From the NCBI GenBank assembly GCA_009840305.1, contig VXNY01000028.1, positions 62,001 through 126,000 on the forward strand: 64,000 nucleotides of DNA, in the 5' to 3' direction. Position 1 is the first letter of the stretch. Each line of letters opens with the position of its first letter. This DNA is from Gammaproteobacteria bacterium (GTDB lineage: Bacteria > Pseudomonadota > Gammaproteobacteria > Pseudomonadales > Azotimanducaceae). The notes beneath the pieces were generated by a model. The model made no database searches. It was not told the origin of the DNA and was given only the letters and a program-made list of their open reading frames with translations. Below, piece by piece: positions 42,670-54,974 of this stretch. The translations under genes were made by a program, and so were the position numbers.

Positions 42670-44055
42670 TCAATGAAATGCATCGGTGAGCTTTTGGTAG
42701 ATTCCACCGAACGCACCATTACTCATGACTACAACGTGAGTTCTTTGCCTCCGTGGTTCACAGAGTTCCGTTACTAGGGCATCAATGTCCGTTACGATTT
42801 TCGTCGGTAAAGTAGTATCAACTAAAAGTTCTTCCAATTTCCATTTAATGTTGGGAGATTGAAACCAAATAACTTCATCGGCCGCAACACAACACTCTTT
42901 TAGTTCAGATCGAAGGGTGCCCAACGACATCGTGTGGGTACGTGGTTCGATTACCGCAATTACTCTCTCCGATCCAACATGCTCCCGAATTCCTTCTAGT
43001 GTGCTCGCGATAGCGGTTGGGTGGTGAGCGAAATCACTGTACACGGTGGTTGAGTCATTTTGTGCGATCACTTCCATCCTGCGTTTCACTCCAGGGAACG
43101 CACTCAAATGTTGAATTGCTGTATCAAGTTCTATGCCCGCGTGGTAGGAGGCGATCAATGCAGCTAGACCGTTTGCGACATTGTGAGCACCAAGCAAATT
43201 CCACGAGACGCGTCCAACATTTCCTTGTCCGTGTTCGACGACATCAAATGCAGAACCATCAGACAAAACGTTGTCAGCGCAAAATTCGAATTTCTCTTCT
43301 GCGTTCTTGGTTGTCGTGAATCTAGTTATGGGAGTCCAGCATCCGCGTTGCAACACCGCTTCAATGTGGTCGTGATTGCAAGGCACAATGATCTGTCCGT
43401 TCCCTGGTACAGCCCGAATTAAGTGTTGAAACTGGTATTTGATTGCATCAAGATTTTCAAAAATGTCAGCATGATCAAACTCCAACGATGTTAGTACGAG
43501 AATGTCAGGGCGATAGTGTAGAAATTTAGACCGTCGATCGAAATAGGAGGTGTCATATTCGTCTGCTTCGACGACAAAAAGTTTATCGCTTCCAAGTTTC
43601 GCTGACAGCTCACTATTGACCGGTACTCCTCCGATCAGAAATCCAGGGTCGACCCCAGCTTCCGACAAAATCCATGCAATCATCGCCGTTGTGGTAGTCT
43701 TCCCATGAGTACCTGCTACCGCAATCACTTGACGATCCTTAAATATTTCTGTTCCTAGCCATTCAGCTCCCGATGTATAGGGAAGCTTTTGGTTTAGGAC
43801 GTATTCGAGCGGTTCAGATCCCCGGGGGAGATTTGCATTTCCCACGATGACTAGCTCCGGAGGCGGTTGTAGCTGCGAGGGATCAAAATGTTCATAGTGT
43901 TCGATATTGGCTCTAGCGAGCAGGTCACTCATAGGAGGATAAATCTGTCTATCAAATCCTTTGACAGAGAATCCCGCTTCCTTTGCGAGTAGGGCAAGAC
44001 TACCCATCAAAGTACCACCGATGCCCATGAAGAACAGTGTCTTTTCATCATTCAC
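42670..44055 (-). CDS. mpl: UDP-N-acetylmuramate:L-alanyl-gamma-D-glutamyl-meso-DAP ligase
   Basis: Recycles cell-wall tripeptide by joining it to UDP-MurNAc, bypassing MurC-MurE. It has 461 residues, three Mur-ligase domains: FFMGIGGTLMGSLALLAKEAG (UMP-binding), VIAVAGTHGKTTTTAMIAWILSEAG (ATP loop) with VVEADEYDTSYFDRRSKF, and the C-terminal domain with FAHHPTAIASTLEGIREHVG and VIEPRTHTM. MurC homologs differ in length and motif; this is the Mpl form by the EADEYDT and RRSKFLHYRP blocks. It overlaps the end of a Yip1-like gene by 8 bases. Confidence 0.93.
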   Translation of the reverse strand: MNDEKTLFFMGIGGTLMGSLALLAKEAGFSVKGFDRQIYPPMSDLLARANIEHYEHFDPSQLQPPPELVIVGNANLPRGSEPLEYVLNQKLPYTSGAEWLGTEIFKDRQVIAVAGTHGKTTTTAMIAWILSEAGVDPGFLIGGVPVNSELSAKLGSDKLFVVEADEYDTSYFDRRSKFLHYRPDILVLTSLEFDHADIFENLDAIKYQFQHLIRAVPGNGQIIVPCNHDHIEAVLQRGCWTPITRFTTTKNAEEKFEFCADNVLSDGSAFDVVEHGQGNVGRVSWNLLGAHNVANGLAALIASYHAGIELDTAIQHLSAFPGVKRRMEVIAQNDSTTVYSDFAHHPTAIASTLEGIREHVGSERVIAVIEPRTHTMSLGTLRSELKECCVAADEVIWFQSPNIKWKLEELLVDTTLPTKIVTDIDALVTELCEPRRQRTHVVVMSNGAFGGIYQKLTDAFH

Positions 44056-44581
44056 TAGTGGGTACCTCTTCCGGTAGGATTGGGGATCCTATGGAAATGT
44101 CTGCCATCCCAATCGATATGAAGGTGAATAACACGGAGATTAGGATTCCCGTCGGGAACATTACATTTAGAGCTTCCTTGAGTATGTACCCTGCGATACA
44201 CATTTGCCAAATTACAATCACAGCAGTCATTACATTGCGTAAGTATTCATCGGCCGGAGCTACAAACACAACAATGAGCATGAATAGATCAATCAGAGTT
44301 CTTGTTCCGACGAATGCGGATAACACCTTGGGGTATCGATTCTGGCTTTGCCTAAAGACCAAAGTAAGATACATCAACACGTTGAACACAACAAAAACCA
44401 CCAAGATTCTGCTGTAATATTTGACTGGATCGGCTGCGACGGGCGAGAACTCAAATCTAAGAAATGAGGTAAGTGCGAACAACGCGCAAACCAGTATCAG
44501 GGTTGCAGTACTCGCGCTAGCGTTTCTAACACTACTTCGGAAGAAGCAGAGTTGTATGTAGGTTCGATATGCTCCGAGCAC
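44048..44581 (-). CDS. Yip1-like membrane protein, copy 3
   Basis: A 177-residue protein with five predicted helices and an N-terminal cytoplasmic stretch containing the FFRSSVRNAS motif that recurs in the next two genes. A GTG start at 44581. The helix arrangement (TATLILVCALFALTSFLRF, YYSRILVVFVVFNVLMYLTLVF, TRTLIDLFMLIVVFVAPA, VMTAVIVIWQMCIAGYILKEALNVMFP, TGILISVLFTFISIG) suits the Yip1/DUF1282 family, whose bacterial function is unclear. Its end overlaps the mpl start, so it may be co-transcribed and coupled with mpl. Confidence 0.6.
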   Translation of the reverse strand: MLGAYRTYIQLCFFRSSVRNASASTATLILVCALFALTSFLRFEFSPVAADPVKYYSRILVVFVVFNVLMYLTLVFRQSQNRYPKVLSAFVGTRTLIDLFMLIVVFVAPADEYLRNVMTAVIVIWQMCIAGYILKEALNVMFPTGILISVLFTFISIGMADISIGSPILPEEVPTSE

Positions 44582-44613
44582 GAAGGTCGTCTAGCCGATG
44601 TGCGTTCTAGTGT

Positions 44614-45192
44614 TCAAGAACCTACTTCTTGTCGAACAATGGTGAGTATTTCGTCCGATATGATCGGACCAATTACAACAAACGCTATGACATACGAGAC
44701 TGTGTTGACGAGGAATGCAACAACTAGGCCTTGATAGAATTTGATGCTGAACGCGCTTCCAAACACATAACCAAAGACACAACAACTCCAAGAAAGCCAT
44801 ACAAACAATAGGACAGTCGGTATAACAGATGGAACGGTCCCTCGGTCTAGAAGTTGTAAAAGCACTCCCACGAGTTGAAACAATACAAACACACCAAAAT
44901 AAGACGCAAGGGTGCCACGAAATTGGCTTGCGGAGTGTTTCATCTTCAGTAATACAAAGATCATCACAATTGCCAACCCATGCCATACTAACGATAGGAA
45001 CCAGATTGTCATACGATGCTCCAATACCTTTAAAGCCAGTACCGAGTCGGTAAAGAGAGACACTAACGGATGCAACTCCAACAGTGCCAACAGTAGAAGA
45101 AACGTTATGATCGTAGCATTGTCTCCTTCGACATCTCGCACCGAACCTCGAAATATACAAAAGTGAACGCATGTTAAAGTCGCCTGCAGCAC
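44614..45192 (-). CDS. Yip1-like membrane protein, copy 2
   Basis: A 192-residue, five-helix protein from a GTG at 45192. It opens MLQATLTCVHFCIFRGSVRDVEG, sharing the FRGSVRDV motif with its neighbours. Helices lie near 29-48, 58-76, 91-113, 121-150 and 152-178, and the C-terminus is short and polar. A longer frame in another phase (44591-45226) overlaps it but is Cys/Arg-rich and not membrane-like. Yip1 family by pattern only. The gap to the copy-3 start is 32 bases. Confidence 0.6.
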   Translation of the reverse strand: MLQATLTCVHFCIFRGSVRDVEGDNATIITFLLLLALLELHPLVSLFTDSVLALKVLEHRMTIWFLSLVWHGLAIVMIFVLLKMKHSASQFRGTLASYFGVFVLFQLVGVLLQLLDRGTVPSVIPTVLLFVWLSWSCCVFGYVFGSAFSIKFYQGLVVAFLVNTVSYVIAFVVIGPIISDEILTIVRQEVGS

Positions 45193-45226
45193 TTAACTTG
45201 TTTAGGTGAAGTACTGAATCACGCAT

Positions 45227-45844
45227 CTATTCTGATGACTGAATTTCAAATCGTTGGTTTTGTAACTCAGCGAACGTCCCCACTTCCTCGGGGAACACTA
45301 TTCCGACAATGATTCCCGCAATAACCGTAGAGACCAACATGATCACTATAGTAGCGAGTATGCCTTGGTAGAGCTTTAGGCTGAACGCATGTTGGAACAC
45401 GTATCCCCCTGCACCGATGAACCAACAAAACATTGCAATTTGAACAGTTCCAAAGATGAAACTTAAGATCGATCCGAAGACAATAGACAATATAGATAGT
45501 AAAAAAACGCCAGCCTGGAACAAGAGCAATAAACCTAAGCATGCTGAGATCGTTTTTGGGAAGCGGTCATTAAATTTGCGGATGTTGAGTACTGTAAAAA
45601 TCATTAGTGCGGCAAATGCGTAGGTAACGATGGGGATGACTAAAAGTACCTTTCGCAAATCGGACACTACTTCTGGACTAAGATTTGTTGAGCCTTGCGA
45701 CGGCAAAGTTAGCCACACAAAAGCAACCAACAGAATAGTAAAGGTAGCAATGGTAGGAAAGCTCCCATTGACATCAACAGGCGAACCTCGAAAGAGCAAC
45801 AACCGAAAAATTGGTTGTAACATTTGATGGAATTTTTGACTCAT
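45227..45844 (-). CDS. Yip1-like membrane protein, copy 1
   Basis: A 205-residue, five-helix protein from an ATG at 45844, first of three tandem paralogs. After MSQKFHQMLQPIFRLLLFRGSPVDVNGSFPTIATF comes the membrane part with TFTILLVAFVWLTLP, VTYAFAALMIFTVLN, LLLLFQAGVFLLSILSIVFGSILS, GTVQIAMFCWFIGAGGYVFQHAF and ATIVIMLVSTVIAGIIVGIVF. Ends in a polar tail. The gene diverges from pfp. Tandem triplication of an uncharacterised family next to a cell-wall recycling gene is unusual, but no role is known. Confidence 0.65.
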   Translation of the reverse strand: MSQKFHQMLQPIFRLLLFRGSPVDVNGSFPTIATFTILLVAFVWLTLPSQGSTNLSPEVVSDLRKVLLVIPIVTYAFAALMIFTVLNIRKFNDRFPKTISACLGLLLLFQAGVFLLSILSIVFGSILSFIFGTVQIAMFCWFIGAGGYVFQHAFSLKLYQGILATIVIMLVSTVIAGIIVGIVFPEEVGTFAELQNQRFEIQSSE

Positions 45845-49836: not shown

Positions 49837-49912
49837 TGGTGGCCAGGGGCAGAATTGAACTGCCGACACGAGGATTTTCAGTCCACTGCTCTACCGACTG
49901 AGCTACCTGGCC
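49837..49912 (-). tRNA. tRNA-Phe (anticodon GAA)
   Basis: The minus strand folds as a complete cloverleaf of 76 bases, including an encoded CCA end. The acceptor stem is GGCCAGG/CCTGGCC, the D-arm GCTC...GAGC, the anticodon stem and loop GTGGA-CTGAAAA-TCCTC-like with GAA at its centre, and the T-arm GGCAG-TTCAATT-CTGCC. Discriminator base A. All stems pair. Confidence 0.95.
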
Positions 49913-50063: not shown

Positions 50064-51152
50064 ATGGGCCAACTACCGAATTGGGTGCACCAATCTCAAA
50101 ATCTTCCACTTCGTTTCGCACAAGTTCGAGAAGATCCCAATTTAGACGCTTGGATCGTTGAAAAGCTCCCTCAAGACGCGACTCTTTTAGTAATAGGTTC
50201 TGGTGGATGTACCCTCGCGGTACTTGCGAGTATGCCTAGTGTGCGAATAATTCACGTCGTTGATCCCAATCCCGCTCAGCTAGCTCTGTGCCGCGTCAAA
50301 CTCGCACTGTTACGAGACAACGACCCTGACGCCCGTCTAAGATTTCTCGGTCATAGCGACCTCTCCCGCGAAGCGAGGGAACATCAATTACATCGTATCT
50401 GTGATGAAACTTGTGAGCCTGTAAGTAGCTTAGGTCCGATAGATCATATCTTAGAGGTCGGTCTTGACTATGGCGGCCGATACGAATCGGTGTTTGGACA
50501 GATCAGCAAATCCGTCGCGACGTTTGACGATTCAGTACTCGACTTGCTCCGACTTGACAACTCGAGTAAACAAGCAAAGTGGCTTCAGATTCACCCCGAC
50601 TTTGTGGCCGGACTATTAGGATGTTTCGATCAAGTGATGAGTTTAGAAAACCTAGTCGCGCTCTTTGGAGAAACCGCGACCCAAAATCCAGTGATGCCTT
50701 TTTCCACTCACTTTTTTCAAAGAACTGTGCATGCTTTGCATTCGTTTAACGCTAGTACCAATCACTTTCTATGGCAAGTTCTAGCGTGTTTCACGAAGAC
50801 CAAACCCATCGCACGATGGCTCAGTCAGCCACGTCAGGAAGTATCAGTGAACTTTCACTTTGAAGCTGAGACCATACAGCATTACTTAGCGCAAATTGAT
50901 GTTCAGTTTGACTACATTCACCTGTCAAATGTGTTAGATTGGTTGACTGTAGAGGAAGCTTGCGCATTGTTAGAATTAACTTGGAATCGATTGAAACCAA
51001 AGGGGTATACCCTGATACGGCAATTAAACTCAGATCTACCTATTCGGGCACTTGGTGAACACTTTACTTGGTTAGATGAGGAATCCGACAATTTACATCG
51101 GGCGGACCTGAGTTACTTCTATCGTCGTGTACATTGTGGTCGAAAAATTTGA
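50064..51152 (+). CDS. BtaA-like aminocarboxypropyl transferase (DUF3419)
   Basis: A SAM-binding protein of the DUF3419/BtaA family, which in characterised members moves the 3-amino-3-carboxypropyl group of SAM to diacylglycerol. The SAM site is TLLVIGSGGCTLAVLA with HVVDPNPAQLALCRVKLALL. The C-terminal family motif is YIHLSNVLDWLTVEEACALLELTWNRLKPKGYTLIRQLNS. Upstream, LRFAQVREDPNLDA is the family's opening block. The ATG at 50064 (MGQLPNWV) is chosen; a GTG at 49983 would add 27 unlike residues. No BtaB methyltransferase lies nearby, so betaine-lipid synthesis is unlikely. First of three co-directional genes, after a divergent tRNA-Phe. Confidence 0.8.
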   Translation: MGQLPNWVHQSQNLPLRFAQVREDPNLDAWIVEKLPQDATLLVIGSGGCTLAVLASMPSVRIIHVVDPNPAQLALCRVKLALLRDNDPDARLRFLGHSDLSREAREHQLHRICDETCEPVSSLGPIDHILEVGLDYGGRYESVFGQISKSVATFDDSVLDLLRLDNSSKQAKWLQIHPDFVAGLLGCFDQVMSLENLVALFGETATQNPVMPFSTHFFQRTVHALHSFNASTNHFLWQVLACFTKTKPIARWLSQPRQEVSVNFHFEAETIQHYLAQIDVQFDYIHLSNVLDWLTVEEACALLELTWNRLKPKGYTLIRQLNSDLPIRALGEHFTWLDEESDNLHRADLSYFYRRVHCGRKI

Positions 51153-51199
51153 CTCACATCGGAACCATACTTTGAAACCACAAGAGTTCGGAAACAACC

Positions 51200-52171
51200 T
51201 TGGCTGAGACTTCACAAATCTTTCGATTGACCGCTCAGGAGATCGCTGAATTCAGTCCGATGTTACGAGACTTCGAATATCAGTTTTGGTATCCGTTGGG
51301 AGAGTCGAGAGAATTTCGTATAGAACATCCGAGCCTGTACACGGATTTTTTTAGTTCGATGGGAGATGCCTATTGTTTTGTAGCTCTGAGAGAAGACGAG
51401 GTAGTAGGTGTATTGAGTGCTGTTATCCGAACTCTTATGGCACCTAACGGGAAAACGACCCAAGTCGCCTATGTAGCAGACGTAAAGATCGCGAAAGAAC
51501 TACAAGGTAGCACGTTACTTTACCGCTTAGCGCGAACTGCTATTCTCTGGTTGCGACCGAAAATCACTTCGGCGTACTCTGTCGTCATGGACGGTACTTC
51601 GGTGACTCCAAAGCAATACACAGGGCGAGTGGGAGTCCCTCAATTCTCATGGTCGGGACGCGTCCATCTACTTAGTTTCTGTACTGCGACAAACTTTCCT
51701 TGGGCGTCAAAAGTTTCGGAACATCCCGTCGACTTGAGCTCCACAGGGTCGGGGATTGAACCACGTCGAACTTCGACTACTGTTTCCACTTGGGCTTCAT
51801 TGAACCCTTTGTTGCGAGCACAGGAAAGCCCAGTGTGGCTTGTCGATCAACAGACCGATGCCGCCGCACTTCTAGAAGATACCAGACTTGCGAAGAGGTT
51901 GTACGACCGGCAACAGAGCGAATATAGATACGCACACTTAACGTACCTCTCGTATGCTGATCCAGAGCACATTGTTCGCTTATTACCTCGTGCGTGTACT
52001 CGGAGTCATTCTTCGGGCTTTACTCATTTATTTGTTACAGTTCCCGACACCCACCTAGGAGCGGTAGAAAGTCGTTTAGAAGATCTCGACCACAATTCGT
52101 TTTCAGCGTCCATATACGGCGTAAGCCTCAGCGAGGACTTTCCTTTTTTGATCAATTCATCGGAGATTTGA
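51200..52171 (+). CDS. GNAT-like acyltransferase in the BtaA-HDO cluster
   Basis: A 323-residue protein from a TTG at 51200. Residues about 60-115 follow the GNAT plan: YCFVALREDEVVGVLSAVIR (strand pair), VAYVADVKIAKELQGSTLLYRLARTAILWL (acyl-CoA-binding motif A with Q-x-G-S). The region beyond is a second, less typical domain with VWLVDQQTDAAALLEDTRLAKRLYD, ending SEDFPFLINSSEI. Two-domain length is greater than simple GNATs. The gene starts 47 bases after the BtaA-like gene and ends 5 bases before the next, so it is likely part of the same transcript. Function unknown; N-acylation of an amine or amino acid is a reasonable guess. Confidence 0.7.
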   Translation: MAETSQIFRLTAQEIAEFSPMLRDFEYQFWYPLGESREFRIEHPSLYTDFFSSMGDAYCFVALREDEVVGVLSAVIRTLMAPNGKTTQVAYVADVKIAKELQGSTLLYRLARTAILWLRPKITSAYSVVMDGTSVTPKQYTGRVGVPQFSWSGRVHLLSFCTATNFPWASKVSEHPVDLSSTGSGIEPRRTSTTVSTWASLNPLLRAQESPVWLVDQQTDAAALLEDTRLAKRLYDRQQSEYRYAHLTYLSYADPEHIVRLLPRACTRSHSSGFTHLFVTVPDTHLGAVESRLEDLDHNSFSASIYGVSLSEDFPFLINSSEI

Positions 52172-52176
52172 GGTCT

Positions 52177-52971
52177 ATGACCACTTCAAGTGAATCCACC
52201 GACTATCCCACTTTACAAGTTAGTAATCGTGCAGAAAAGGTATTGAAAGAGTCAGGTGTTCTGACTAATAGCTATCTAACCGCGTTAGCAGATGGTAGCA
52301 TGACAAGAGAAATGTTCCGATTGTCGCAAGAACAGTTTTTCTTTGCCGTCACGTTCTTTCCCCGACCTATGAGCGCTTTAGTGGGTCGTCTTCCTGATCC
52401 AATACAAAGACTCGACATCCTAAAAAACGTCGTGGAAGAACACGGCGAGTTTGCCGAAAGTAAATTTCATCAAACGACTTTCGTACAGTTTTTGACATCG
52501 CTAGGGAGCGAAGTTGAGTCATTGGGTGAAAAATCTGCGTTGTGGCCTGAAGTTCGGGCTTTTAATACGGTATTAGCAGGTTCCTGCGTGCTTTCGGAAC
52601 TTGAGGTAGGAATCGCGTGTATGGGCATTATTGAACTTGCTTTCGCTTCGATATCGGCGAGTATTGGTACAAGCGTTGTGCGTCGTCAATGGGTCGAAAG
52701 AGACAACTTGACACACTATACCTTACATGCCGAACTCGACGAACAGCACGCCGACGAATTTTTTCGCGTGATCGAACCAGCCTGGGACATTCCAGATCGC
52801 CGACACTACATTGATCAAGGTCTCAAATTAGGGGCTTATGTCTTCAAACAACTGTACGAGAGTCTTTACGCTACAGCACAGTTAAAACTCGCTACAGTGG
52901 AAAACCAGAATGACAAGGATCCAAATGAGTCGGATCTTTTCGATGCGGAAGCCACGGAAGATCCACATTAG
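52177..52971 (+). CDS. Heme-oxygenase-like diiron enzyme (TenA/PqqC-like superfamily)
   Basis: A 264-residue all-helical protein. The frame stays open upstream to 51994, but that overlaps the GNAT-like gene; the ATG at 52177 follows a GAGG site and gives the expected N-terminus (MTTSSESTDYPTLQ). Likely metal ligands are seen in EQFFFAVTFFPRPM, NVVEEHGEFAESKFHQTTF and HAELDEQHADEFF, the latter an H-x-x-D-x-x-H-like pattern, as in the heme-oxygenase-like diiron oxidases that cleave or oxidise amino acids and lipids. Partners: a BtaA-like and a GNAT-like gene. The substrate is unknown; the stop codon overlaps that of the convergent FG-GAP lipoprotein gene. Confidence 0.75.
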   Translation: MTTSSESTDYPTLQVSNRAEKVLKESGVLTNSYLTALADGSMTREMFRLSQEQFFFAVTFFPRPMSALVGRLPDPIQRLDILKNVVEEHGEFAESKFHQTTFVQFLTSLGSEVESLGEKSALWPEVRAFNTVLAGSCVLSELEVGIACMGIIELAFASISASIGTSVVRRQWVERDNLTHYTLHAELDEQHADEFFRVIEPAWDIPDRRHYIDQGLKLGAYVFKQLYESLYATAQLKLATVENQNDKDPNESDLFDAEATEDPH

Positions 52972-54974
52972 TTGCTTGCAACTAGTAGTACTGCTGTAAG
53001 TTCCACTGTTTTCGGCGGTAAACAAATGTCGTCATTACAGGTTTGGTAAGTGACCTGACTCTCGATCGTGTATTCACCCGGAGCACTATCCTCTGTTCCT
53101 ATTTTTTGGATCACGGCGAGGTCTGAGCCACGAAAGACATCGTAAGAGCCTTTAAACTGATGCATCGGCATTTTCAGCTTTCCTAACTGTTGTATGCTTT
53201 CAGGTACGGTAAACGAGACTTTAGTCTCTTTCATGCCTTGTTTGGCGTTTTTCCCCGTGGGCGCGTAAATGTACCACCCGTCTTTTATATCAATGGCGAG
53301 AGAAACTTCCGCGGTGGAATCAGGGTCGACTTTCTCGGGAACGACTAACTCCAATTTGACCGGTAGCTTGGATTCTTCTTCTACCTGAGAAGTCTCGTTT
53401 TTATCGGTTTTCGGATTGGGTAATTTGGAATCAGCCGTTTCAGCATCGTCCGCCTCGGTACCCAACATTACATAGATTCGTCCTTGGTGGCGCATGGTCA
53501 ACCAGTGTTCTCGCCCTGTGTCGTACAGAACACCGACAGATTTTTGCCAGTAGTCCACTTGCATTTGAAAGAACTCGTCAAACTCTTCGTCAGTACCCCT
53601 AAAGCCGCCAGTGTCCTCGTATTGTGCTAGAAACGCCTCACGGTCGGGCTTTTCTCTTGGTGGATAGCGACCGGGGTCTTTTCCAGCACTCTCGACGCTG
53701 TTTGTACCTTCCCATTCCCATGACAACTCATCAGAGAATTCACCTCCATTCACGGTTGCAACACTTGCACCGATGATTAGGTCTGGGATGCCGTCAAGAT
53801 TCCAATCGTCAACGTACAAGCGGGGACCGCTACCCGGCAGTGCTTTACTACCATCCTCGGTTGCTAATAAGTCGATCGCGGGATGAAAGCGATGCTCACC
53901 ATCTACTTTGACTCCTTTGAAAAACGCTACAGCCAAGGCACCTTCATTTCTATAGCTACCGGTCACCAGGAGATCTAAGACTCCGTCGCGATCCCAATCC
54001 ACAACATATGGCGAGGTCTTAGAATCTCCGGCAAGGGAAACCATAGACGTTTGTGCCCAACCTTCAACGTCTTCGTCGGTTGCGACTTTGCCAATAGTTA
54101 ACGGTTTACCATTGACATCTAAAAGTAGTTCTCGGCGTCCAAACTTGGGTTCAGTTTTTGTTCCAATGTTCTTACTGATTTTCAGGGCATTACCGCCAAA
54201 AATTAGATCGTAATCTCCGTCGTCGTCGAAGTCTCCCATTGACGCTGAGGAATACACCCAATAATCAAACGTTTCAATTGGATCAGGTATTTCAGCTTCC
54301 TCCGGATTCTCCATAAGTTCAAGGTATATTGGGTTCCATGCGGCTTCGGGATTTCCTTCTTGTGGCAGTTTCACGCCCGGTAGAAACCCTTCTTCATTGC
54401 CGCGAAACCATGTAACTTCGCCGGGATGGTATTGACCCGTGATCATGTCGTCAAAGCCATCATCGTCTAAGTCGTAGAAGTACGGAGTGAAGCCGATGCA
54501 ACACCATTGTTCAACTTCCATGATCGTCCCCGCGGTATCTCGTGCCCACTCAAATTCATTTGCGAATTGAGGGTTGTCGTCGCTCCCTATGTTAAGATAG
54601 ACACGAACGGTCGAACCGTCCTCGGACATTGGAAAGTTTTCTCCAGAGTTGGTTTCAAACTCGCCGACAAGTAAATCTCGCTTACCGTCCCCGTTCCAAT
54701 CCCATAGCGCGGGTGCCGCTAAACCGTGTTTTTCTGTTAACGCGGGAGCATCACCAGCCATAACCAACATTGGTTGTTGCAATTTCGGGGCCCCTGGAAT
54801 ATCAGCTCCGACAATTTCGGGAAACTGCATTTCTCCCATTGTGGAAGTCTGTTCGGATTGCGGTAGGAGAGATTGTTGCACCACCGATTGCTCTTCCTCT
54901 GATTCTTGACTACATCCTAGTAGCACAAAACCGCAAGAAATCAGGAAGAGTCTTGTTAAAAGTCTGATATTCAT
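52968..54974 (-). CDS. FG-GAP-repeat lipoprotein with C-terminal DsbD-type domain
   Basis: A 668-residue exported protein with a lipobox (FVLLGCSQ). Residues about 60-480 hold at least five FG-GAP/VCBS-like repeats with calcium-type acidic loops: DWNGDGKRDLLVGEF, DLDDDGFDDMITGQY, DFDDDGDYDLIFGG, DWDRDGVLDLLVTGS and DWNLDGIPDLIIGAS. Residues about 540-668 match the DsbD N-terminal (DsbC-corrector-like) domain: GWYIYAPTGKNAKQGMKETKVSF, then VTYQTCNDDICLPPKTVEL with the paired Cys of the redox site. An exported beta-propeller joined to a thiol-relay domain is uncommon. It may receive electrons from a DsbD-like partner; that is inference. Confidence 0.8.
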   Translation of the reverse strand: MNIRLLTRLFLISCGFVLLGCSQESEEEQSVVQQSLLPQSEQTSTMGEMQFPEIVGADIPGAPKLQQPMLVMAGDAPALTEKHGLAAPALWDWNGDGKRDLLVGEFETNSGENFPMSEDGSTVRVYLNIGSDDNPQFANEFEWARDTAGTIMEVEQWCCIGFTPYFYDLDDDGFDDMITGQYHPGEVTWFRGNEEGFLPGVKLPQEGNPEAAWNPIYLELMENPEEAEIPDPIETFDYWVYSSASMGDFDDDGDYDLIFGGNALKISKNIGTKTEPKFGRRELLLDVNGKPLTIGKVATDEDVEGWAQTSMVSLAGDSKTSPYVVDWDRDGVLDLLVTGSYRNEGALAVAFFKGVKVDGEHRFHPAIDLLATEDGSKALPGSGPRLYVDDWNLDGIPDLIIGASVATVNGGEFSDELSWEWEGTNSVESAGKDPGRYPPREKPDREAFLAQYEDTGGFRGTDEEFDEFFQMQVDYWQKSVGVLYDTGREHWLTMRHQGRIYVMLGTEADDAETADSKLPNPKTDKNETSQVEEESKLPVKLELVVPEKVDPDSTAEVSLAIDIKDGWYIYAPTGKNAKQGMKETKVSFTVPESIQQLGKLKMPMHQFKGSYDVFRGSDLAVIQKIGTEDSAPGEYTIESQVTYQTCNDDICLPPKTVELTAVLLVASN

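What the first reader, a model, noticed from the sequence alone, without database searches (positions are those of the whole stretch)
50064..52971. BtaA-like transferase, GNAT-like protein and diiron enzyme cluster: a candidate undescribed pathway
Three co-directional, closely spaced genes encode a SAM-dependent aminocarboxypropyl transferase fold, a GNAT-like acyltransferase and a heme-oxygenase-like diiron enzyme. BtaA proteins normally work with BtaB to make betaine lipids; here BtaB is absent. Heme-oxygenase-like diiron oxidases are known to rearrange or cleave amino-acid substrates. Together they suggest aminocarboxypropylation of an acceptor, oxidation and acylation, giving a small molecule I cannot name.
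Basis: partly seen in the sequence, partly recalled or inferred. Interest (0 to 1): 0.75.

Follow-up and report, generated by a model that had tools for sequence, protein, structure and literature searches.

The report
Recurring three-gene pathway, product unknown
Three neighbouring genes in this bacterium form a small set that recurs in distant bacterial groups and probably builds an unknown molecule by adding part of S-adenosylmethionine, acylating it and oxidising it with oxygen.

Summary
The three genes are real and sit where stated. A GTDB contig scan with the HDO (haem-oxygenase-like diiron enzyme) gave 32 loci; 28 carry DUF3419, GNAT and HDO adjacent in one order. GNAT searches of sampled genomes of three phyla gave 26 strong genomes (8 already known): all 26 have DUF3419 within 2 kb, 21 the HDO nearby, 4 elsewhere, 1 not found. 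Gene order varies.

The DUF3419 proteins group apart from BtaA. The GNAT is a tandem GNAT; its predicted fold best matches eukaryotic N-myristoyltransferase, whose C-terminal carboxylate is the catalytic base, and its own extreme C-terminus is conserved in 47 of 51 loci. The HDO keeps its metal ligands but not the sacrificial residues of the related p-aminobenzoate synthases. In 11 loci an FA_desaturase gene joins, in 4 a PAP2_3 gene.

Best reading: aminocarboxypropyl transfer from SAM, O2-dependent oxidation and N-acylation, giving an amphiphilic amino-acid product. All reactions are inferred; acceptor, acyl chain and product are unknown. The papers searched do not describe the set.

The parts
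50064..51152 (+). DUF3419 (BtaA-like) SAM-dependent transferase, 362 aa
   Evidence: PF11899 E 6.3e-19; AlphaFold2 model pLDDT 94.7, nearest PDB folds are generic class I methyltransferases with poor TM scores; groups with 36 other rows of the set apart from 22 high-scoring PF11899 (BtaA) rows
51200..52171 (+). tandem GNAT (N-myristoyltransferase-like) N-acyltransferase, 323 aa, ending SSEI-COOH
   Evidence: model pLDDT 86.2; Foldseek best 4caw, N-myristoyltransferase, E 1.5e-12, TMq 0.65; C-terminal motif in 47 of 51 loci
52177..52971 (+). haem-oxygenase-like diiron oxidase (HDO), 264 aa
   Evidence: PF14518 E 7.2e-17; nearest PDB sequences are p-aminobenzoate synthases and BesC; ligand positions kept

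Best explanation
The three genes are the core of one biosynthetic pathway. (1) The DUF3419 enzyme transfers the 3-amino-3-carboxypropyl group of SAM to a nucleophilic acceptor, most likely an alcohol as in BtaA (inferred from family; not shown). (2) The HDO, joined in 11 loci by an FA_desaturase-family membrane enzyme, uses O2 to oxidise this amino-acid moiety or the attached chain, for example by desaturation or C-C scission (inferred). (3) The tandem GNAT acylates the amine, its N-terminal domain binding the acyl thioester and its own C-terminal carboxylate acting as base, as in N-myristoyltransferase (inferred from fold and from the conserved C-terminus). The product would be an N-acylated, oxidised aminocarboxypropyl compound, i.e. 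an amphiphile or lipid. The order of steps 2 and 3 is open. Shown: families, predicted folds, ligand residues, the conserved C-terminus and the co-occurrence. Inferred: every reaction.
For: Co-occurrence: 28 of 32 loci; of the four exceptions three come from genomes that hold a DUF3419 gene beside a GNAT gene on another contig. A GNAT query gave 26 strong genomes (E below 1e-15) in three phyla, 18 of them new, all with DUF3419 within 2 kb. Gene orders differ while the content stays. Identity distances of the three proteins correlate at 0.80-0.85 over 37 loci (shared ancestry contributes). DUF3419 shares Q.xED..D, SGGC, VDxN, DW and DRSxxY with BtaA. GNAT fold and C-terminus; the base role in NMT is in PMC7048800 and PMC4964394 (passages seen). 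HDO: H-x3-D-x2-H in 54 of 56 matched pieces and E-E-[HQ]-G...H in 53 of 56; an H-x3-[D/E]-x2-H core helix marks HDOs (PMC11611611, passages). FA_desaturase beside the set in 11 and PAP2_3 in 4 of the 59 loci given.
Against: I know of no assayed enzyme of this DUF3419 group, and its acceptor-side motifs differ from BtaA (SNxLDW for LLDAQDW, RQLNS for FRTA in the 23 set rows; L135 reads SNISDW and RRLNG), so it could be a methyltransferase or use another acceptor. The GNAT could use acetyl-CoA: Eis-like acetyltransferases also rank among the fold hits (3n7z, 2hv2). I had no model coordinates, so I could not check that the C-terminus reaches the active site. The desaturase and PAP2_3 genes are not beside the window's set, and no such desaturase was found in its genome. 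G356, the cyanobacterial MAG of L044, holds the HDO but neither partner; in G426 no HDO was found, its pair ending at a contig end.
Confidence: 0.55

Rival explanations
1. A membrane lipid: the acceptor is diacylglycerol as for BtaA, giving a homoserine ether lipid that is N-acylated in place of BtaB's N-trimethylation, with acyl chains modified by the HDO and desaturase. PAP2_3 would supply the diacylglycerol.
For: BtaA kinship; no separate BtaA found in the genome; FA_desaturase and PAP2_3 genes beside the set in several phyla; myristoyltransferase-like fold. BtaA uses diacylglycerol and SAM (PMC10685587, passages). [quoted passage not shown]
Against: Acceptor-side motifs differ from BtaA; no lipid data; the closest NCBIfam model of the three desaturases scanned is an arginine hydroxylase, GntB, at 74-89 bits against a cut-off of 380; the aminolipid N-acyltransferases reviewed in PMC11631085 share PF13444 (passages), which did not match here up to E 1.
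Confidence: 0.3
2. A soluble enol-ether (vinylglycine-type) amino acid, built like rhizobitoxine: an aminocarboxypropyl ether made from SAM by DUF3419, desaturated by the desaturase or HDO, and N-acylated for protection or transport.
For: Rhizobitoxine is an enol-ether amino acid whose last step is a desaturase, RtxC (PMC6304460, PMC5827301, PMC3222319, passages); that dihydrorhizobitoxine carries an O-aminocarboxypropyl group and that RtxC is of the FA_desaturase kind is recalled. [quoted passage not shown]
Against: RtxA and RtxC were not searched for or compared here; the window's genus lacks the desaturase beside the set; PAP2_3 is unexplained by this reading.
Confidence: 0.2
3. The HDO is a self-sacrificing p-aminobenzoate synthase (CADD/NePabS type) serving folate synthesis, and its neighbours are incidental.
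For: Closest PDB sequences are p-aminobenzoate synthases; no pabB match was found in the window's genome although all 14 control genomes ring, 4 of them over the cut-off.
Against: The sacrificial Tyr27 and Lys152 (PMC11965152, passages) line up without gaps, by eye on the printed alignments, with F/L/V and a nearly invariant Ile; the CADD model scores 46 bits against a cut-off of 200; the neighbours recur across phyla.
Confidence: 0.03
4. A peptide or protein modification system: the myristoyltransferase-like GNAT, DUF3419 and HDO act on a ribosomal peptide or protein.
For: NMT acts on peptides (PMC7048800, passages); an HDO acting on a peptide, MboA, is known (PMC13185094, abstract and introduction).
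Against: Of the 12 largest clusters of small frames within 800 bases of the set, at a lenient E of 0.01, none spans all groups; two link different groups (8 loci of two gammaproteobacterial groups; 6 loci of Verrucomicrobiota and Gammaproteobacteria) and were not examined further.
Confidence: 0.08

Closest known systems
BtaA (SAM:diacylglycerol 3-amino-3-carboxypropyltransferase), PF11899
   Same: same Pfam family; shared SAM-side motifs
   Different: set rows on one side of a branch at 100/100; 68.8 bits to PF11899 against 327-395 bits for the 22 rows taken as BtaA by that score; acceptor-side motifs differ; none of the 7 window neighbours scanned is a methyltransferase
Eukaryotic N-myristoyltransferase (and Eis-like tandem GNATs)
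   Same: tandem GNAT fold, best TMq about 0.65; conserved free C-terminus as in NMT, where it is the base
   Different: about 9-13% identity; about 260-340 aa rather than 352-446 in the NMT chains listed; genetic context; acyl donor and acceptor unknown
HDO p-aminobenzoate synthase (CADD, NePabS) and BesC
   Same: sequence kinship and metal ligands
   Different: sacrificial Tyr and Lys absent; recurring partners DUF3419 and GNAT
Rhizobitoxine pathway (RtxA/RtxC)
   Same: aminocarboxypropyl ether (recalled) followed by a desaturase; in 11 loci an FA_desaturase-family gene joins the set
   Different: RtxA has an O-acetylhomoserine sulfhydrylase-like part (PMC3222319, passages) instead of SAM/DUF3419; no HDO or tandem GNAT is known there (recalled)

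Membership tests
BtaA | PF11899 match with the BtaA motif set | tested here: inconclusive
   Over the Pfam cut-off, but only the SAM-side motifs are shared; the acceptor-side motifs differ
BtaA | falls inside the BtaA group | tested here: not met
   37 set rows (100/100), 22 BtaA rows (100/98) and 3 rows of a third type (100/99) are separate groups
BtaA | works with BtaB on diacylglycerol | not testable with these tools
   no assay possible; btaB was not searched for in the genome
N-myristoyltransferase-like tandem GNAT | two GNAT domains in one chain | tested here: met
   model; whole-chain Foldseek match, E 1.5e-12
N-myristoyltransferase-like tandem GNAT | conserved free C-terminal carboxylate | tested here: met
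   47 of 51 loci (one genome counted twice); the four others are a contig end, a frame with ambiguous bases and two broken frames
N-myristoyltransferase | long-chain acyl-CoA donor and N-terminal glycine acceptor | not testable with these tools
   no coordinates or assay
HDO | three His and three carboxylate ligands incl. HxxxDxxH | tested here: met
   assigned by alignment to CADD; E87/E88, H98, E153, H184, D188, H191 invariant in 27 rows; motif counts
p-aminobenzoate synthase (CADD) | sacrificial Tyr27 and Lys152 | tested here: not met
   F/L/V and a nearly invariant Ile at these positions in gapless alignment, read by eye
Aminolipid N-acyltransferase (OlsB type) | PF13444 domain | tested here: not met
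   no PF13444 match listed up to E 1

The most novel reading that the evidence does not exclude
A bacterial myristoyltransferase-like enzyme with a catalytic C-terminus, a BtaA-like SAM transferase and up to two O2-activating diiron enzymes make a lipid or lipid-like compound class that has not been described, spread across several bacterial phyla and probably including cyanobacteria.
Probability: 0.35. Interest if true: 0.85.

Novelty: new variant of a known kind. Interest (0 to 1): 0.7.

Why it matters
Each enzyme belongs to a known superfamily, but the combination, its constancy across phyla and a bacterial tandem GNAT with a conserved, NMT-like C-terminus are not described in the papers I could search. 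It gives a concrete way to find a new product class: three or four genes, some of them in genomes of the cyanobacterial phylum that may be cultured. It would also test whether C-terminal-carboxylate catalysis, called unique to NMT among GNATs in a 2016 review (PMC4964394, passage), is wider.

Tried and rejected
Considered and rejected: chance neighbours; BtaA proper; p-aminobenzoate synthase, although the absence of a pabB match in the genome speaks for it.

Led nowhere: HDO query in viral contigs, no match; PDB sequence searches for DUF3419 and GNAT, best E 0.082 and 0.018; Foldseek for DUF3419, only generic methyltransferases with poor TM; promoter scan, 3 sites against a shuffle mean of 4.0, and terminator scan, 8 against 3.3, none of them followed up. 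One search picked wrong reading frames for the BtaA loci and was replaced. In one search the desaturase was already present as cluster k10 (6 of 27 loci) and an ABC-ATPase-like cluster, k5 by eye, in 10 of 27; I noticed the first only later and did not annotate the second.

Results against the reading: HDO without partners in G356; no HDO found in G426; weak GNAT matches (E above 1e-15) in 2 of 19 Planctomycetota genomes and one second match (L103, L104, L105), 2 of 7 Verrucomicrobiota and 9 of 13 Cyanobacteriota genomes showed no full set in the fetched stretches; L104 has a weak DUF3419-like match that one search does not list, and no HDO; in G355 the DUF3419 and GNAT genes are divergent and the former is cut by the contig end; no desaturase in the window's genome.

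Limits: the GTDB scan used two peptide patterns; at most 5 or 6 candidates per genome were scored and genomes were a sample, so counts are lower bounds; phylum names of G genomes come from the record title of the locus at the centre of the sample.

Rows dropped: L021-L023 (near copies) from A4-A6; also L027, L036, L040, L046 from A4, L030 and L040 from A5, L040, L046 and L051 from A6; L077 and L078 (partial matches) from the BtaA rows; L021-L023, L088-L090, L027, L030, L036, L043, L046, L051 and loci without all three genes from the distances and the tree.
Full report
1. The observation. The window (G000:C24:62001-126000, a 2.62-Mb genome of 35 contigs, 95.6% complete) holds three co-directional genes: DUF3419 at 50064-51152, a GNAT-like gene at 51200-52171 (TTG start) and an HDO gene at 52177-52971. 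Pfam gives PF11899 (6.3e-19) and PF14518 (7.2e-17) over their cut-offs and two GNAT models below theirs (8.7e-4 and 1.3e-3). A tRNA-Phe lies at 49837-49912 on the other strand, and an FG-GAP/DsbD_N protein at 52968-54974 faces the HDO gene.

2. Co-conservation near home. Searched with the DUF3419 protein, 9 of 17 other genomes of the same genus match and 0 of 40 from other genera of the family and order. In all 9 the GNAT and HDO genes follow in the same order. The set sits in three different neighbourhoods in these genomes, so the neighbourhood is not what holds it together.

3. Co-conservation far away. A GTDB contig scan with the HDO alignment (two peptide patterns) found 32 loci: records titled Gammaproteobacteria or Pseudomonadales, Planctomycetota, Verrucomicrobiota, a cyanobacterium, a Melainabacterium, a Rickettsiaceae bacterium and two named only bacterium. 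In 28 of 32 the three genes are adjacent in the same order; 9 of these 28 are the genus mates above. In L027, L030, L036, L046 and L051 one or more of the three genes is broken over frames. The four loci without partners are L037, L038, L042 and L044. The genomes of the first three hold a DUF3419 gene beside a GNAT gene on another contig (in that of L042 the two are divergent and DUF3419 is cut by the contig end); the genome of L044 holds neither.

4. A second query. The GNAT alignment A5 was searched in samples of three phyla: 392 Planctomycetota (19 genomes with 20 matches), 387 Verrucomicrobiota (7 genomes) and 339 genomes of the phylum of the Melainabacterium, Cyanobacteriota in GTDB (13 genomes). 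Matches with E below 1e-15 leave 17, 5 and 4 genomes. All 26 have DUF3419 within 2 kb. The HDO lies in the same gene group in 12, 5 and 4 of them, elsewhere in the genome in four Planctomycetota (G353, G354, G355, G495), and was not found in one whose pair ends at a contig end (G426). Eight of the 26 genomes were already known, so 18 are new. The weaker matches showed no full set. Gene orders: DUF3419-GNAT-HDO; DUF3419-HDO-GNAT (L165, L167, L169, L170); HDO-DUF3419-GNAT, with a desaturase gene before (L162-L164) or between (L137, L138), or a longer gap before GNAT (L135). Content kept while order changes is the mark of one function. DUF3419 and GNAT overlap by 4 bases in 19 of 28 loci, and the identity distances of the three proteins correlate at 0.85, 0.84 and 0.80 over 37 loci (shared ancestry contributes).

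5. The DUF3419 protein. Model pLDDT 94.7; the PDB folds found are generic class I methyltransferases with poor TM scores. Against 22 sequences that match PF11899 at 327-395 bits, which I take as BtaA (their BtaB was not checked), it shares Q.xED..D, SGGC, VDxN, DW and DRSxxY but has SNxLDW and RQLNS where they have LLDAQDW and FRTA (23 set rows of the DUF3419-GNAT-HDO kind; L135 reads SNISDW and RRLNG). In a maximum-likelihood tree of 62 rows, 37 set rows (100/100), 22 BtaA rows (100/98) and 3 rows of a third type (100/99) are separate. So it is kin of BtaA, not BtaA. It is the only PF11899 gene found in this genome; btaB was not searched for.

6. The GNAT protein. Model pLDDT 86.2, pTM 0.87. 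Foldseek ranks N-myristoyltransferases first (4caw, E 1.5e-12, TMq 0.65), with Eis-like acetyltransferases among the first 21 (3n7z, 2hv2). The last four residues read SSEI in the window and fit [ST][SAGY][EDQ]I in 47 of 51 loci (L052 and L092 are one genome); of the four others one is cut by a contig end, one has ambiguous bases after SAEI and two have broken frames, one of which reads TAEV in another frame. In human NMT1 the C-terminal carboxylate of Gln496 is the catalytic base (PMC7048800, passages), and a 2016 review calls this unique to NMT among GNATs (PMC4964394, passages). I recall a like role in Eis. That the C-terminus does this here is inference; I could not read model coordinates.

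7. The HDO. Its nearest PDB sequences are p-aminobenzoate synthases and BesC. E87/E88, H98, E153, H184, D188 and H191 (numbering of the 264-aa protein; ligand roles by alignment to CADD) are invariant in alignment A6 of 27 rows; over the loci HxxxDxxH is found in 54 of 56 matched pieces and the E-E-[HQ]-G...H stretch in 53 of 56. The CADD sacrificial residues Tyr27 and Lys152 (PMC11965152, passages) fall on F/L/V and on a nearly invariant Ile (by eye). The genome nevertheless has no pabB match while all 14 control genomes ring, 4 over the cut-off, which I report as evidence for the p-aminobenzoate rival.

8. Accessory genes. An FA_desaturase-family protein lies beside the set in L027, L029, L031, L041 (partial), L047, L137, L138, L142 and L162-L164, that is in 11 of the 59 loci (which include eight HDO-only loci, some short stretches and four second copies). 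Four of these proteins were scanned and match PF00487 at 4.8e-46 to 8.5e-43; for three, the closest NCBIfam model is the arginine hydroxylase GntB at 74-89 bits, cut-off 380. A PAP2_3 protein (PF14378) lies beside the set in L027, L029 and L031 and is fused to the desaturase in L142. Neither is beside the window's set, and no such desaturase was found in its genome. L162-L164 come from the phylum sample; by eye their neighbours look cyanobacterial, but their names are not known.

9. Mechanism. Shown: families, predicted folds, ligand and C-terminal conservation, co-occurrence. Inferred: SAM aminocarboxypropyl transfer to an acceptor, O2-dependent oxidation, amine acylation. The accessory genes suggest an amphiphile or lipid. 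Against a soluble amino acid of the rhizobitoxine kind I have little; the RtxC comparison rests on recall and on passages naming RtxC the desaturase of an enol-ether amino-acid pathway.

10. Literature. Searches: 'DUF3419' with 'heme-oxygenase-like' 0 papers; 'aminocarboxypropyl', 'BtaA' and 'diiron' 0; 'heme-oxygenase-like diiron' with 'genome neighborhood' 1, on mangotoxin; 'DUF3419' 4, on algae, plants or a fungus; 'betaine lipid', 'BtaA' and 'Planctomycetes' 2; 'betaine lipid', 'homoserine', 'N-acyl', 'aminolipid' and 'bacteria' 4; 'GntB', 'guanitoxin', 'desaturase' and 'hydroxylase' 0. None described the set in the listings and passages that I saw; no paper was read whole. The library lacks most subscription journals.

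Noticed in passing
L042:4162-5331: The HDO frame runs on into roughly 140 residues that look like a VOC/glyoxalase domain (by eye, no domain search): a possible HDO-VOC fusion.
   Followed up: no
L142:4292-6226: FA_desaturase and PAP2_3 domains in one 645-aa frame just before the DUF3419 gene.
   Followed up: partly
G000 (window genome): No pabB match at E 0.001 although all 14 control genomes ring, which suggests that chorismate-using enzymes of this kind are missing or very divergent.
   Followed up: no
L129, L130, L131 (G354, G353, G495): A third DUF3419 type of about 385 aa in Planctomycetota genomes that also carry the set; a group of its own in the tree.
   Followed up: partly
G355:C937 and G355:C1251: A second, more divergent HDO and another, contig-cut DUF3419 in one Planctomycetota genome.
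   Followed up: no
window 44048-45844: Three consecutive membrane-protein-like frames on the minus strand that look alike by eye and recur in genus mates.
   Followed up: no
window 52968-54974: Minus-strand protein combining FG-GAP repeats with a DsbD N-terminal domain, overlapping the end of the HDO gene by four bases.
   Followed up: partly
L026, L028, L033-L035, L037, L038, L042, L049, L051: An ABC-transporter-ATPase-like gene cluster (k5, by eye) lies within the fetched stretch of 10 of 27 loci; a very common family, so possibly chance.
   Followed up: no
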